A stretch of DNA of 51,838 nucleotides from Actinomycetes bacterium (lineage in GTDB: Bacteria > Actinomycetota > Acidimicrobiia > Acidimicrobiales > Ilumatobacteraceae): the NCBI GenBank assembly GCA_025358125.1, contig JANYKS010000061.1:1-51838 (forward strand), read 5' to 3'. The first letter of the stretch is position 1. Every line of letters begins with the position of its first letter. Position numbers and translations under genes: made by a program. The notes beneath the pieces are model-generated. The model had not been told where the DNA came from. It was given only the letters and a program-made list of their open reading frames with translations, and made no database searches. Below are positions 22,313 to 29,749 of the stretch, piece after piece.

Positions 22313-22891
22313 ATGACCGCGCCACGGACGCCCGATCCTTACTGTCGGCTGCCGATTCCGCGCCTTTCCAGCGTTCCCGAGCTCGATCCTGAGCTGCAGG
22401 CCCGGGTCGATCGGGGGGCGGATCCTGTCGAGCACGGTTTGTTCGGCTGGGCGCCGGAGCACTTCAAGCGGTGGCTCGCCTTCGAGACGCCGTTGCGGTT
22501 CAAGGGCAAGGTCGAGTTACGCACCAAGGAGATCGCCCGCCTCCGGATCGCCCGCCTCAACGAGTGCCACTATTGAAGCAACGGACGTTTTCTGTCCCGG
22601 TCGGGAGAGCAATACGTCGAGGAGGAACTGGCCGATGCGGTGATGGACGGCGAGATCGACGATCCGCGGTTGACGCGACGCGAGCGGGCAGCGCTCGCGT
22701 TCGCTGACCGCTTCTGGAACGACCACAATGCCATCGACGATGAACTCTTCGCCGAGATCATGCACGAGTTCAGCCCTGAAGAGTTCATCGAGCTGGCCAT
22801 GTCGGTCGCCCAGTACATCGCCATGGGCAAGGTCATCGCCATGCTGGGCATCCCCAATCCGCTCTTCCGAGACCACGTTCACGACAACTGA
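22313..22891 (+). CDS. Carboxymuconolactone decarboxylase/AhpD-like protein with in-frame TGA (candidate selenoprotein)
   Basis: One frame runs 192 residues if the TGA at 22574-22576 is read through. Upstream reads TKEIARLRIARLNECHY and downstream SNGRFLSRSGEQYVEEELAD, continuing to LTRRERAALAFADRFWND. This is the CMD/AhpD fold, in which a CxxC pair acts as peroxidase or disulfide catalyst. The TGA falls exactly at the second cysteine (Cys85-His-Tyr-TGA88). The 105 sense codons after TGA are open, well conserved and without any other lesion. A GGUC-capped hairpin follows the TGA, and a terminator-like hairpin follows the second stop. Candidate starts are ATG 22274, 22301 and 22313. The alternative is a recent Cys-to-stop mutation; no Sec machinery is visible in the window. 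Confidence 0.6.
22591..22610 (+). promoter_or_regulatory. Candidate bacterial SECIS-like hairpin after in-frame TGA
   Basis: TCCC (22595-22598) pairs with GGGA (22603-22606), closing a GGTC loop at 22599-22602. CT (22592-22593) and AG (22607-22608) can extend the stem past a G bulge. The loop begins 22 nt after the TGA and with GG, both within what is described for bacterial SECIS elements. The stem is short. A second small hairpin, GGAC/GTCC, lies at 22583-22597 and competes with it. Confidence 0.4.
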
Positions 22892-22915
22892 AACGCCGCG
22901 GCCCGCCGCGGCGTT
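22892..22915 (+). terminator. Perfect hairpin after the CMD-like gene
   Basis: AACGCCGCGG-CCCG-CCGCGGCGTT begins on the base after the distal stop codon. It is a 10-bp perfect stem with a 4-nt loop but no long T-tract. Its place argues that the true gene end is 22891, not the internal TGA. Confidence 0.55.
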
Positions 22916-22919
22916 ATGC

Positions 22920-23536
22920 AGATGCTTGTGCGGGTAGCGTGCGTTCTTGATCACGTGCCACGCCGAAGCCTTCGAATAGAGGGGCGCCGAGCACGGACGG
23001 GACACCATGGTGAGCGGCGGTTCGTCCGCCGCATTGACGACCGAGAATTCGGTTTCCGACCACCTTTTGCCATCGACAACCGCGCAGGCGAGCAGCCCGC
23101 GACCGTGGGCAAAATTGGCCAGGTTCTTGATACGTGACGCCTTGTCACGAACCGTGCCACCGTCCTCGCCGATCTTGGCCTCGATGATGACCGTCGGTGC
23201 ATCCTCGGGCAGCACGAAGTCTGGGCCGGGTGACAGTCCGAACTTGGCGGCGGCGGCAGATGCGCCGGACGCCCCCGACGGTGTCCGGTAGTACGGGATG
23301 TGTGCGTCGTCGAACAGTTTCGAGATTGGAATCTCGAGCAGGTTGTCGCCCTTCACCTCGCTGTATGCGTCTTGCACCTGACGCCATACGCCTCCGACGT
23401 ATCGCTGGTAGAGGAGCGCAGAGTACGGCACGCCGGCAGCGTCAGCGACAACGGTGACCCATCCGTTGGTCGTATCCCGCTTGTCGAGTTCGTCGCCGTG
23501 GGACGCGGTAGGACGAAACCCGGCGACTCCTGGCAC
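22920..23536 (-). pseudogene. PD-(D/E)xK-type restriction endonuclease-like protein, probably incomplete
   Basis: The minus-strand frame reads YQRYVGGVWRQVQDAYSEVK and ISKLFDDAHIPYYRTP, then LSPGPDFVLPEDAPTVIIEA followed directly by Lys. Asp in PDF and Glu-x-Lys in IIEAKIG form a plausible PD-(D/E)xK nuclease core. Then LANFAHGRGLLACAVVDGKRW resembles restriction-enzyme cores. The frame runs on antisense to the CMD-like gene without a stop until 22517; that tail is not believable. No methyltransferase is nearby. The start (GTG 23536) is weak, so both ends may be lost. Confidence 0.45.
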
Positions 23537-23614: not shown

Positions 23615-24961
23615 TCATGTTCGTTTGACGTATCGGCGTGTCGGGTCGTTGGGACCGGAACCGACTTCGTAGACGAGGCCGAGTTCAACGAGGCGTGTCA
23701 TGCGGGTTCGGGTGGTACGACGGGATCGGCCCAGCGCAACGGTGAGCTCGGCAGTGGACATGCCAGCCGTGCTGGCACGACCCAGTACGTCGAGCAGGGT
23801 TTGTTCGTCTGGGTTGAGTGCGGGTTGGTTGGCGGTCGTGGTGGGAAACGTCACTCGGAATCTGCCGCCGAGTTCTTCGAAGATCGGGGCTGGCAGGCCT
23901 GCGCTGCGAACCTCGTCGAGAATGCGGGCGATGCCGCTGCCCCATTGTTCGATGTAGCCGAGTTCTTTGAAGGTTCGGGCGATGACCCGGTTGCGAATGC
24001 GGGAGATGCCCGACGAGAGGTCTTCCACAGCGAGGCCGTTGGGGAGCAGGCCAGGGTTCTCGATTTCGAGTCGGTCATCGAAGAGGGCTACTCGGATCGG
24101 ACCCCCGTGTTGGCTGTAGTCGGCGTGTACTGCAGCGTTGACGAGCGCTTCGCGGACGGCAACGAGTGGGACGGGACGCTGGACTTCATTGGTGAGGCCG
24201 GTCACGAGGATTCGTCGGGCAAAGTGGCCGTCGATGAAGTCCATCGCATCGCGGACCATGCCGGGCAGCGACGGGCCGGACGTGTCTGTGGTGTCGATGA
24301 TGCGTGTTCGGTTGGTGCCGTCGAAACGGGCGCAGACGATCGTGGCGTCCGGGAACGCCTTGCGGTTGTTGCCGAACAGGACGAGGCCGCCGACCGTAGG
24401 CACGTCATGAGCCTGGTATCTCGTGGTGAGTCCAAGGTTTGCCAGATCGGTGCGACGGACGTGTCGTCTGGTCGAGAACTCGGCAGTGATGACGTCGTAG
24501 GCGAGCGAATCAATCGACTCGGACGGGTAGGGCGATTCGTCGAATGATTCGTGCCGTGCGGAGCGTTGCATCTCAGCGATGAGTTGGGGGTCGGCGCGGC
24601 GATTGGAAGAACCCAGCCGGACGTAGACGGTTCCGTCCGAGCTGAGCTGATGCGGTCGGGAGGGGCTGAGGTGGACGTTGACGACGATGACGTTCGTTGA
24701 TCGCCATCGCACGATGTCGATGTCGGGGATCAGGCTTGGCGAGATGGAGTCGTTGACCAGATTGACGAGCCTGGACTCTGTAAGAAGAGGGTCGGCGAGT
24801 CCGGGTATTGAGCGGTCGTCATCGACACCGATGACCAAGGTTCCTCCGGCGGTGTTGGCAAACGCGGCGAGTGTCCTCAGCAACGGTTTGGGTGACGAGA
24901 GGTCTCGTTTGAACTCGAGCCGTTTACCTTCAGGTTGCGCGAGCATGTTCTCCAACTGCAT
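23615..24961 (-). CDS. AlbA_2 (Schlafen-like) / HATPase_c_4 putative transcriptional regulator
   Basis: 448-residue protein with three parts. The N-terminal AlbA_2 domain (EGKRLEFKRDLSSPKPLLRT, AFANTAGGTLVIGVDDD) is the type named for Schlafen proteins. A central GHKL-ATPase-like segment (VREALVNAAVHADYS, FDDRLEIENPG, NRVIARTFKELGYIEQWGSG) follows, then a C-terminal winged helix (TAGMSTAELTVALGRSRRTT). Proteins of this design are annotated as DNA-binding regulators and are frequent near defence genes. The ATG at 24961 is chosen over an in-frame TTG 21 nt upstream because a promoter with TAGATT and repeated operator-like sites lies directly before it. Confidence 0.8.
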   Translation of the reverse strand: MQLENMLAQPEGKRLEFKRDLSSPKPLLRTLAAFANTAGGTLVIGVDDDRSIPGLADPLLTESRLVNLVNDSISPSLIPDIDIVRWRSTNVIVVNVHLSPSRPHQLSSDGTVYVRLGSSNRRADPQLIAEMQRSARHESFDESPYPSESIDSLAYDVITAEFSTRRHVRRTDLANLGLTTRYQAHDVPTVGGLVLFGNNRKAFPDATIVCARFDGTNRTRIIDTTDTSGPSLPGMVRDAMDFIDGHFARRILVTGLTNEVQRPVPLVAVREALVNAAVHADYSQHGGPIRVALFDDRLEIENPGLLPNGLAVEDLSSGISRIRNRVIARTFKELGYIEQWGSGIARILDEVRSAGLPAPIFEELGGRFRVTFPTTTANQPALNPDEQTLLDVLGRASTAGMSTAELTVALGRSRRTTRTRMTRLVELGLVYEVGSGPNDPTRRYVKRT

Positions 24962-24962
24962 G

Positions 24963-25007
24963 CTCTGCAATCTACTCTGCAAACTCTAACTGTCACAGCT
25001 TGCAGAG
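24963..25007 (-). promoter_or_regulatory. Promoter with three TTGCAGAG operator-like repeats
   Basis: On the minus strand, GTGACA (24991-24996) and TAGATT (24969-24974) are 16 nt apart, and the hexamer ends 7 nt before the ATG. CTCTGCAA occurs on the plus strand at 24963 and 24975 and inverted (TTGCAGAG) at 25000. The sites overlap and flank the -10, suggesting autoregulation by the winged-helix protein (inference). Confidence 0.5.
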
Positions 25008-27238: not shown

Positions 27239-29749
27239 GTGGGCTACGAGACGTACACGTTGCGGATGACTTCGTCGATGGTGGTTACATCGGATGCGAC
27301 GAGGGCCATCGCTTCAGTGCCCATTGTGCGCATGCCTTGGGCGACCGCAAGGGCACGCATTTCTTGCGGTGCGGCCTCTGAAACCATCAGGCGGCGGATC
27401 TCGTCGGCGCCGGCAAACGCCTGCGCCGACGGCGGCAAGAACCCGGCCTCGATTGGCGCGAGCACCAATCCGGATGCCGTTACCACCTATCCGCAGACCG
27501 TGTCGATCGACGCGCCCTTGACGTTCAAGACCGGCCATTATGTCTTCTGCGCCGGATTGAACATTGGCGCAGGCGGGCGCGTGGCCGGCACCGATGTCCT
27601 GCTCTACATCGCCGGCGGGTCCGTGGCGGTCGACGCCAACGCTACAATCGACCTGACGGCATTCGCCGAGGGGCCCGACGCCAACCTACTGATCTGGGTC
27701 GCAACTCCTCAGACGGTCACACTCGCAGGTGGGGCGCGGATCAGCAGCTACCGAGGAATCATTTACGCGCCGAGTTCCACACTGCGCCTCGCGAGCGCGC
27801 TGGCCACCAACATCGGCGGGTTCAGCGTCCAGAAAATGATCATCAGTGGTCAGGGCGCACTTCGCATCGGTCTGCTGGTGCCGATATTGGCCATCAGCCC
27901 GCCGTCGATCCCGATAGCACAGGTGGGTGTGGCATACGCGGCAACGCTGATCTCGTCTGGCGCAACGTCGCCGGCGAGGTGGACCGCAAGGGGTCTGCCC
28001 CCCGGCCTCAGCATCGATTCGTCGACAGGGATGATCTCCGGGACTCCAACCACGTTCGGCTCGTTTGGAATCGTCGTGACCATGTTCGATGCCACCGCGG
28101 CGGCGGCCACAATCGACTACACCATCTCGGTCGCTGCGAAGTTGGCGATCAGCGGCCCGATCTCACTTCCGACGGGGCAGACGGGAATTGCCTATCCCCC
28201 TACGACTGTGATGTCCACCGGTGGCGTCGCCCCGACGAAGTGGTCAGCAACGGGCATGCCCGCTGGGATGACGATCGACGCCGTGACCGGTGCGATGACC
28301 GGCACGCCGACATCGTATGGGTCGTTCAACACCGTCGTGTATGTCACCGACGCGATGTCGGCCACCGCACTGATGGATTACACCATCTCGGTCGCTCCTC
28401 CTCTGGTTGTCGCAGGGCCAGCAGCGCTACCGGCTGGGCGGGCGGGAGCGGCGTACTCGACGACGACCATGATTTCGTCGGGTGGCACGTCGCCATCTTC
28501 ATGGTCAGCTACCGGTCTGCCGTCTGGACTGTCGATCACGCCATCGACCGGCGTGTTCTCGGGCACCCCGACCACGTCTGGCTCGTTCAATGTGACCGCC
28601 ATTGTCACCGACTCGATCGGAGCGGTCGCTTCGAGCGGCTATGTACTCACGGTGTCGCCTCCGGCGGTCACGTTGACCGTGTCGGGGCCAGGCAGCCTGT
28701 CAACGGGTCAGGTGAGTTCGCAGTACCCGAACACCACCGTCGGCGCGACGGGCGGGGTGCAACCATATGCCTGGTCAGGCACCGGACTACCCGCAGGTCT
28801 CGCGATCGATTCGTCGACCGGAGTAATCAGCGGGACGCCGACTGTGGCCGGTACCTTCGATGTCACGGTCAGAGTTTCCGACGCGTCGGCGACGGCCGCG
28901 CAGATGGCGTACCCGATGACGATCAACCCGGTCGTCGTGGTGCCGCCCGGGTGTCCGGCCACCCCGCTTGGTTGGCGCGGAGAGTACTTCGCGAATGCGA
29001 CGCTGACGGGTTCCTCGACGCTGTGCCGCGACGATGCAAACGTCAACTTCGACTGGGGTTACGGATCCCCAGCGCCTGGCTTGCCGGCGGACGATTTCTC
29101 GGTGCGCTGGACCAGAACCCAAGACTTCGCCGCCGGCAACTACACTTTCACAGTCGGCTCTGACGACGGGGCCCGGTTGTACATCGATGGTGTGCTCATA
29201 CTCGACCGTTGGGTCGATCAGGCCTACCCGACGCCGCAGCCAACAGTCGGACGTTCGCTCACGAACGGCAGCCATGCCGTCGTGATGGAGTACTACGAAC
29301 GCGGCGGTGCGGCGCGCGCGACGCTGACGTGGTTTACGGGCGCTGCGCCGCTGCCACCATCGTGCACGGTCGCTGCTGCCGGATGGCTCGGCGAGTACTA
29401 CGGCAACGTCTCGTTGTCCGGCTCGCCGACGCTGTGCCGCGACGATGCAAACGTCAACTTCGACTGGGGCTACGGAGCGCCCGCAAGTGGCCTGCCGTCA
29501 GACAACTTCTCGGTGCGCTGGACCAAGACGCTGAGCTTCAAGGCCGGCAAGTACAAGTTCTGGCTCGGCACCGATGACGGCGGGCGACTGTATATCGATG
29601 GCGTCCTCGTGCTCGACCGATGGGTCGATCAAGGCTATCCATCACCGTTGCCGAGCACGGTGCGAACGTTGCCCGCCGGCAACCACACCATCGTCGTGGA
29701 GTATTACGAGCGAGGTGGAATCGCTCGGGCTTCGCTGGTATTGCAATGA
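27239..29749 (+). CDS. Large Ig-like/PA14 surface protein, 5' end replaced
   Basis: 836 codons are open, but roughly the first 65 are antisense to a PilB fragment and show no signal peptide, so the natural N-terminus is probably gone. Real sequence starts about residue 78 (AVTTYPQTVSIDAPLTFKTG) with a beta-rich domain to about 205. Four putative-Ig (He_PIG) modules of about 85 residues follow, each with a W-x-A/G-x-GLP-x-GL-x-I-x-x-x-TG-x-x-x-GTPT motif. Two PA14 modules end the protein (LGWRGEYFANATL and AGWLGEYYGNVSL), each with DD and RLYIDGVLILDRWVDQ. PA14 usually binds glycans. Without a signal peptide export is doubtful; it may be a pseudogene. Confidence 0.7.
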   Translation: MGYETYTLRMTSSMVVTSDATRAIASVPIVRMPWATARARISCGAASETIRRRISSAPANACADGGKNPASIGASTNPDAVTTYPQTVSIDAPLTFKTGHYVFCAGLNIGAGGRVAGTDVLLYIAGGSVAVDANATIDLTAFAEGPDANLLIWVATPQTVTLAGGARISSYRGIIYAPSSTLRLASALATNIGGFSVQKMIISGQGALRIGLLVPILAISPPSIPIAQVGVAYAATLISSGATSPARWTARGLPPGLSIDSSTGMISGTPTTFGSFGIVVTMFDATAAAATIDYTISVAAKLAISGPISLPTGQTGIAYPPTTVMSTGGVAPTKWSATGMPAGMTIDAVTGAMTGTPTSYGSFNTVVYVTDAMSATALMDYTISVAPPLVVAGPAALPAGRAGAAYSTTTMISSGGTSPSSWSATGLPSGLSITPSTGVFSGTPTTSGSFNVTAIVTDSIGAVASSGYVLTVSPPAVTLTVSGPGSLSTGQVSSQYPNTTVGATGGVQPYAWSGTGLPAGLAIDSSTGVISGTPTVAGTFDVTVRVSDASATAAQMAYPMTINPVVVVPPGCPATPLGWRGEYFANATLTGSSTLCRDDANVNFDWGYGSPAPGLPADDFSVRWTRTQDFAAGNYTFTVGSDDGARLYIDGVLILDRWVDQAYPTPQPTVGRSLTNGSHAVVMEYYERGGAARATLTWFTGAAPLPPSCTVAAAGWLGEYYGNVSLSGSPTLCRDDANVNFDWGYGAPASGLPSDNFSVRWTKTLSFKAGKYKFWLGTDDGGRLYIDGVLVLDRWVDQGYPSPLPSTVRTLPAGNHTIVVEYYERGGIARASLVLQ
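27244..27430 (-). pseudogene. PilB/GspE-type secretion ATPase C-terminal fragment
   Basis: The minus strand reads ADEIRRLMVSEAAPQEMRAL, AVAQGMRTMGTEAMALVASD and VTTIDEVIRNVYVS before the stop. This is the invariant tail of type IV pilus / type II secretion assembly ATPases (GMRTL...G.TT.EEV.RV). Only about 60 residues remain. The fragment lies antisense under the apparent start of the PA14 protein gene, marking a junction near 27430-27465. Confidence 0.75.

What the first reader, a model, noticed from the sequence alone, without database searches (positions are those of the whole stretch)
22313..22891. Candidate selenoprotein: AhpD/CMD-like gene with TGA at the redox cysteine
Seen: one frame codes a complete carboxymuconolactone-decarboxylase-like protein whose only fault is TGA at the second cysteine of C-H-Y-C. 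All 105 codons downstream are intact. A GGUC-loop hairpin starts 19 nt after the TGA (loop at +22), and a perfect hairpin follows the distal stop. Known: bacterial Sec insertion uses UGA plus a hairpin 16-37 nt downstream with G early in the loop, and Sec replaces catalytic Cys in thiol-redox families; AhpD-like selenoproteins have, from memory, been reported in marine metagenomes. Inference: this is CxxU. A recent nonsense mutation is the main alternative.
Basis: partly seen in the sequence, partly recalled or inferred. Interest (0 to 1): 0.9.

Follow-up and report, generated by a model that had tools for sequence, protein, structure and literature searches.

The report
Selenocysteine AhpD-like enzyme hidden by TGA
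This gene has an in-frame TGA "stop" where its relatives have an active-site cysteine, its genome carries the selenocysteine machinery, and dozens of related public proteins end at exactly that spot, so it is very likely read through into a selenium-containing redox enzyme.

Summary
Window 22313-22891 encodes a 192-residue CMD/AhpD-like protein with TGA at codon 88, the second redox position of C-H-Y-x. Its genome (inferred Acidimicrobiales, Ilumatobacteraceae) carries selA beside selB, selD and a tRNA-Sec(UCA). The nearest homologue with DNA held, from another family of the order (47% identical), has TGA at the same codon. A search with the protein up to the TGA found 65 database proteins; 54 end exactly at C-x-x (48 at CHY or CHF), as expected if gene callers stopped at this codon. 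Two of the 54 are not independent of the query, and DNA was seen for one gene only. Among wider relatives, 78 of 82 TGA-flagged genes examined have the TGA at CxxU. A recent nonsense mutation is therefore very unlikely. The downstream hairpin (GGUC loop at +23) fits a bacterial SECIS and recurs at the same place in the homologue, but on its own it is not beyond chance, and 9 of 17 Cys homologues fold better. CMD/AhpD-like CxxU selenoproteins have been in print since 2005: this is a new member of a known kind. What may be new is a CHY-U subfamily hidden as truncated "hypothetical proteins".

The parts
22313..22891 (+). Predicted selenoprotein gene, CMD/AhpD-like, 192 residues with residue 88 as predicted Sec (start codon by comparison with homologues)
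   Evidence: Frame and Pfam CMD across the TGA; homologue L064/L021 with the same TGA; P0123 of 87 residues aligns over the whole N-terminal part
22565..22576 (+). Redox motif C-H-Y-TGA (CxxU)
   Evidence: aligned with CHY-TGA in L064 and CMFC/CPFC in L065-L068
22574..22576 (+). In-frame TGA, predicted Sec codon (residue 88)
22592..22609 (+). Candidate SECIS hairpin, loop GGUC at 22599-22602 (+23)
   Evidence: same register with loop GGUCU in L064/L021; weak against shuffles
22892..22915 (+). Perfect 10-bp hairpin after the distal stop, without a run of T; possible terminator
   Evidence: -18.7 kcal/mol, z -3.03

Best explanation
The gene at 22313-22891 is very likely a selenoprotein gene: it carries an in-frame TGA at the second cysteine position of the AhpD-like CxxC motif, and this TGA is predicted to be read as selenocysteine by the SelB and tRNA-Sec(UCA) that the same genome encodes. 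Inferred steps: SelB with Sec-tRNA would recognise the GGUC-loop hairpin at +16 to +33, insert Sec at residue 88 and let translation run on to the stop at 22889. The helical AhpD-like protein would then use Cys85 and Sec88 as a redox pair (selenylsulfide when oxidised) to reduce a peroxide or a disulfide; which residue attacks first, and the substrate, are unknown.
For: Machinery in the genome: selA, selB beside it with GTPase, beta-barrel and C-terminal winged helix, selD, tRNA-Sec with UCA anticodon. Same TGA at the aligned codon in L021/L064, 47% identical, another family. 54 of 65 database proteins found with the N-terminal piece end exactly at C-x-x, 48 at CHY/CHF. 78 of 82 examined TGA-flagged CMD relatives have TGA at CxxU. 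Same-genus and other homologues have Cys there (CMFC, CPFC). Conservation continues after the TGA (44% identity over 100 codons against 50% over 84 before it, third-position excess). AhpD fold predicted. Hairpin in the same register in L064.
Against: The hairpin alone is not beyond chance, scores no Rfam SECIS family, is weaker than in 71 of the 78 TGA genes and weaker than the best chance hairpin of 9 of 17 Cys homologues. Only two CHY-TGA genes were seen as DNA (window and L064/L021); the rest are protein ends. G182, source of L021, gave no SelB hit at E<=1e-40 (78% complete), though it has tRNA-Sec(UCA). No protein-level data.
Confidence: 0.93

Rival explanations
1. A recent nonsense mutation or sequencing error has hit an ordinary CxxC gene, leaving an 87-residue dead or partial protein.
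For: Same-genus homologues L022 and L023 carry Cys at this codon; the hairpin by itself is not significant.
Against: Same TGA in a homologue of another family with an intact frame; 54 of 65 database proteins end at the same codon; the frame stays open and conserved for 104 codons.
Confidence: 0.03
2. The TGA is read, but not as selenocysteine: another tRNA (for example Trp or Cys) reads through it.
For: Leaky read-through of UGA is known in general (recalled). Sequence data alone cannot separate the readings.
Against: TGA sits at the catalytic redox position in 78 of 82 examined TGA-flagged relatives, with Cys as the alternative; a full Sec system is in the genome; 10 of 10 relatives checked have tRNA-Sec.
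Confidence: 0.02
3. The TGA is a working stop and the 87-residue N-terminal product is the functional protein, the downstream frame being a separate or regulatory piece.
For: Many database entries are annotated as such short proteins.
Against: The Pfam CMD domain and the fold run across the TGA; full-length Cys homologues exist; conservation is similar on both sides.
Confidence: 0.02

Closest known systems
CMD domain-containing selenoprotein (PF02627, CxxU; Sargasso Sea, PMC1088965) and AhpD-like 2 (pfam02627, CxxU; GOS, PMC2398784); passages seen
   Same: Same Pfam family, Sec at the second position of CxxU, redox family with Cys homologues
   Different: Sequences of those families were not in hand, so whether the CHY-U genes are among them was not tested; those surveys are metagenomic, this one lies in an Ilumatobacteraceae-like genome with its Sec machinery
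NCBIfam seleno-AhpD models NF053654 (YciW-related (seleno)protein) and NF041238 (alkylhydroperoxidase-related (seleno)protein)
   Same: Best NCBIfam matches of the window protein; CxxU redox proteins of the AhpD superfamily
   Different: Scores 38.7 against a cut-off of 310 and 27.9 against 175: not a member of either as modelled
Cys homologues of the same subfamily group (L065-L068, L022-L024, P0003 and others)
   Same: 33-45% identity in most of the top listed hits, similar length and architecture
   Different: CMFC, CPFC, CHMC or CHLC instead of CHY-U; L022, L023, L070, L071 and L024 have no hairpin with the loop at +23 as their best
Solved AhpD-like structures (7xw1, 2ijc, 2o4d PA0269; 2oyo; 6k40)
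   Same: Best fold and sequence matches
   Different: 16-27% identity in the Foldseek rows named; their active-site residues were not inspected here

Membership tests
Bacterial selenoprotein gene | In-frame TGA at a position that is Cys in homologues | tested here: met
Bacterial selenoprotein gene | SelA, SelB, SelD and tRNA-Sec(UCA) in the genome | tested here: met
Bacterial selenoprotein gene | SECIS hairpin just downstream with a G early in a small loop | tested here: inconclusive
   Form met (GGUC at +23) and same register in L064; not beyond chance alone, no Rfam SECIS hit
Bacterial selenoprotein gene | Independent conservation of the TGA | tested here: met
   L064/L021 by DNA; 54 of 65 protein ends
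Bacterial selenoprotein gene | Selenium present in the protein | not testable with these tools
   Needs 75Se labelling or mass spectrometry
CMD/AhpD-like family (PF02627) | Pfam model over its cut-off | tested here: met
   31.9 bits against 23
CMD/AhpD-like family (PF02627) | All-helical AhpD fold with the CxxC/CxxU motif | tested here: met
   Model and Foldseek; motif
CMD/AhpD-like family (PF02627) | Peroxide or disulfide reduction | not testable with these tools
   Inferred from family only
NCBIfam NF053654 / NF041238 seleno-AhpD equivalogs | Score over the curated cut-off | tested here: not met
   38.7 of 310 and 27.9 of 175 bits

The most novel reading that the evidence does not exclude
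The window gene belongs to a distinct CHY-U selenoprotein subfamily, present in Acidimicrobiales and, by one database label, beyond Actinomycetota. It has its own SECIS register (GGUC loop at +23, where 72 of 76 other CMD selenoprotein genes examined have their best loop at +18 to +21) and is almost wholly hidden in public databases as short proteins of 60 to 120 residues cut at the Sec codon.
Probability: 0.75. Interest if true: 0.5.

Novelty: new member of a known kind. Interest (0 to 1): 0.45.

Why it matters
If true, a selenium-enzyme subfamily is being lost in gene calling: dozens of entries stop at the Sec codon, miss the C-terminal half, and the NCBI seleno-AhpD models do not reach the window's copy. 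Acidimicrobiales, largely known from MAGs, appears rich in CMD-type selenoproteins with natural Sec/Cys swaps, including same-family Cys orthologues (L028, L031) that lack the hairpin. That makes it a useful place to ask when Sec is kept and when it is lost. The mechanism itself is known.

Tried and rejected
Rejected: recent nonsense mutation or sequencing error (same codon in independent assemblies). Rejected: UAG recoding in G003, suggested by a '1 TAG' flag; it is the terminal stop. Rejected: the TGAs of L022, L071, L123 and L134 as Sec; they are the terminal stop or lie at an edge of the match. Led nowhere: Rfam (one irrelevant hit, E 6.7); first genome-contig scan with the single protein (no relative); viral contigs pattern (0 matches); plasmids (3 records, 33-38% identity); phylum sample (1 of 396 genomes at E<=1e-35, the window's own); family (4 of 221: window, two CMFC, one CPFC); relatives of G182 (3 of 397, no new CHY-TGA gene, largely the same sample). 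These genome searches score a limited number of first-look candidates per genome, so misses are possible. The hairpin-energy comparison (median -12.0 kcal/mol for 78 TGA genes, -8.4 for 17 Cys homologues, p 7.7e-4) is told with caution: rows are related, the Cys set was picked by me, and 9 of 17 Cys genes fold better than the window.

Full report
Observation. Window 22313-22891 (+) is a coding frame interrupted only by TGA at 22574-22576, with 104 sense codons and a TGA stop after it. Read through, it is a 192-residue protein with a Pfam CMD domain spanning the TGA. The motif is C85-H-Y-(TGA). A perfect 10-bp hairpin follows the last stop at 22892-22915.

Machinery. The same genome (G000, 4.06 Mb, 118 contigs, 93% complete) has selA directly beside selB on contig C45, selD on C103, and one match over the tRNA-Sec cut-off, on C33, which ARAGORN calls tRNA-SeC with anticodon UCA. 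The SelB frame carries the GTPase, a beta-barrel and the C-terminal winged helix PF09107; that this part of SelB binds SECIS is recalled. Ten relatives chosen for a check all have a tRNA-Sec over cut-off (10 of 10). SelB is over its cut-off in 135 of 199 relatives. G182 and G114, two genomes with TGA-type genes, gave no SelB hit at E<=1e-40 there (78% and 90% complete); both have tRNA-Sec.

Who carries it. Five named records were found by a genome-contig scan: L064 (Acidimicrobiales MAG; contig length equal to that of G182's), L065 (Acidimicrobiales MAG, as G004's, same genus as the window), L066 (Actinomycetes MAG, as G003's), L067 (actinobacterium) and L068 (Ilumatobacteraceae MAG, as G093's, same family as the window). 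The window's genome is thus inferred, not shown, to be an uncultured Ilumatobacteraceae member of Acidimicrobiales.

Same codon in relatives. Of 199 relatives, 113 have a match to the read-through protein. The best outside the genome, L021 (G182, another family of the order, 47% identical), reads CHY-TGA at the aligned codon and is otherwise open. I examined 82 matches flagged with TGA or holding one, from the lists (a selection, not all of them): in 78 of 82 the TGA is the fourth position of C-x-x-TGA; in the other four it is the terminal stop or lies at an edge. L022 and L023 of the window's genus have CMFC. In a tree of 106 rows (77 Sec, 29 Cys, the Cys rows picked by me; one duplicate row dropped) the labels need 8 changes and well-supported branches force at least 4. 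The window and L021 fall in a 16-row group whose other 14 rows are Cys; how they branch inside it is open.

Ends in public databases. A search of 5.8 billion proteins with N-terminal pieces ending at CHY gave 65 proteins at E<=1e-5. Of these, 54 end exactly at C-x-x (43 CHY, 5 CHF, 6 others), 10 are full-length CxxC proteins and one (P0169) is neither. Two of the 54 are not independent: P0110 was a row of the query, and P0122 lies on a contig of L064's length, so it is taken to be that gene. The tool's length window favours short proteins, so the share is no frequency; the exact end point is the evidence. The stop codon itself was seen as DNA only for L064. Whole-length identity to the window's N-terminal part reaches 86% (P0123). 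Where a name is given it is often 'hypothetical protein'; P0161 is labelled Burkholderiales. No protein among the 176 held, from all three searches, reads CHYC or CHFC except P0001, the window itself with TGA written as C. In the full-length search (131 hits, 120 listed) nearly all close relatives have Cys there (109 of 121 proteins by a simple motif, P0001 among them; nine with Glu, three without the motif).

Constraint after the TGA. Window against L021: 42 of 84 aligned residues identical before and 44 of 100 after the TGA; third positions hold 45 of 111 and 59 of 136 of the base differences; G+C by codon position is similar on both sides. One antisense frame is also free of stops there, as is common in G+C-rich DNA.

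The hairpin. It has the expected form, and in L064/L021 the loop is GGUCU at the same +23 on a different stem. Among the 78 TGA genes the best loop starts at +18 in 28, +20 in 9, +21 in 35, +25 in 3, +16 in 1, and +23 in these two only. Two same-family Cys orthologues (L028, L031: CVVC) have almost no hairpin (-3.3, -1.8 kcal/mol) where close Sec relatives have -12.6 to -14.2. But for the window alone chance is not excluded: z -0.89, 97 of 500 codon resamplings as good, 18 of 500 with a GG loop; 9 of 17 Cys homologues hold a better-folding chance hairpin, and 71 of 78 TGA genes a stronger one. It is support, not proof.

Structure and function. An AlphaFold2 model from 6 sequences (mean pLDDT 77.6, pTM 0.74) matches AhpD-like proteins best (7xw1, 2gmy, 2ijc, 2oyo, 6k40), and sequence search agrees (2o4d PA0269, E 1.1e-12). 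That the CxxU pair reduces a peroxide or disulfide is inferred from the family.

What is known. The Sargasso Sea study lists an AhpD-like family (27 sequences) and a CMD domain family (4), both CXXU (PMC1088965, passages seen). The GOS study lists AhpD-like 2, pfam02627, CxxU, 70 sequences, and finds it more abundant in non-marine samples (PMC2398784, passages). Reviews of 2022 and 2026 list a CMD-like CxxU selenoprotein (PMC9312934; PMC13188914; passages). Searches of the open-licence library for selenoprotein or selenocysteine with Acidimicrobi- or Ilumatobacter listed 2, 1 and 3 papers, none of which treats selenoproteins of this order by title or the shown start of abstract; I opened none, and most subscription papers are not held. 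NCBI's seleno-AhpD models score the window protein far below cut-off.

Verdict.

Noticed in passing
L098 (G000:C24:28475-28864): A second CMD-like gene of the same genome with TGA at CxxU (CHT-TGA), in a different branch of the tree; its hairpin is weak.
   Followed up: partly
L028 and L031 (G049, G032): CVVC orthologues of CVV-TGA genes in the same family, almost without the hairpin: natural Sec/Cys swaps with loss or absence of SECIS.
   Followed up: partly
G182:C130:2324-2659: A second TGA-flagged CMD match on the contig that carries L021's gene; not fetched.
   Followed up: no
P0161: Database protein ending at CHY, labelled Burkholderiales: the subfamily may reach beyond Actinomycetota, or the bin is wrong.
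   Followed up: no
P0172-P0176: Five database proteins ending at C-T-L, C-D-L or C-A-V at the same codon: perhaps a further CxxU group.
   Followed up: no
window 22517-23536 (-): A 339-residue antisense frame overlaps the 3' part of the gene; no Pfam match. A real gene there probably starts at 23536 and ends earlier, or is a chance frame.
   Followed up: partly
window 23615-24982 (-): Schlafen/AlbA_2 domain with a RecG-like C-terminal ATPase-type domain.
   Followed up: no
window 27239-29749 (+): Long protein with repeated putative Ig domains and PA14 domains.
   Followed up: no
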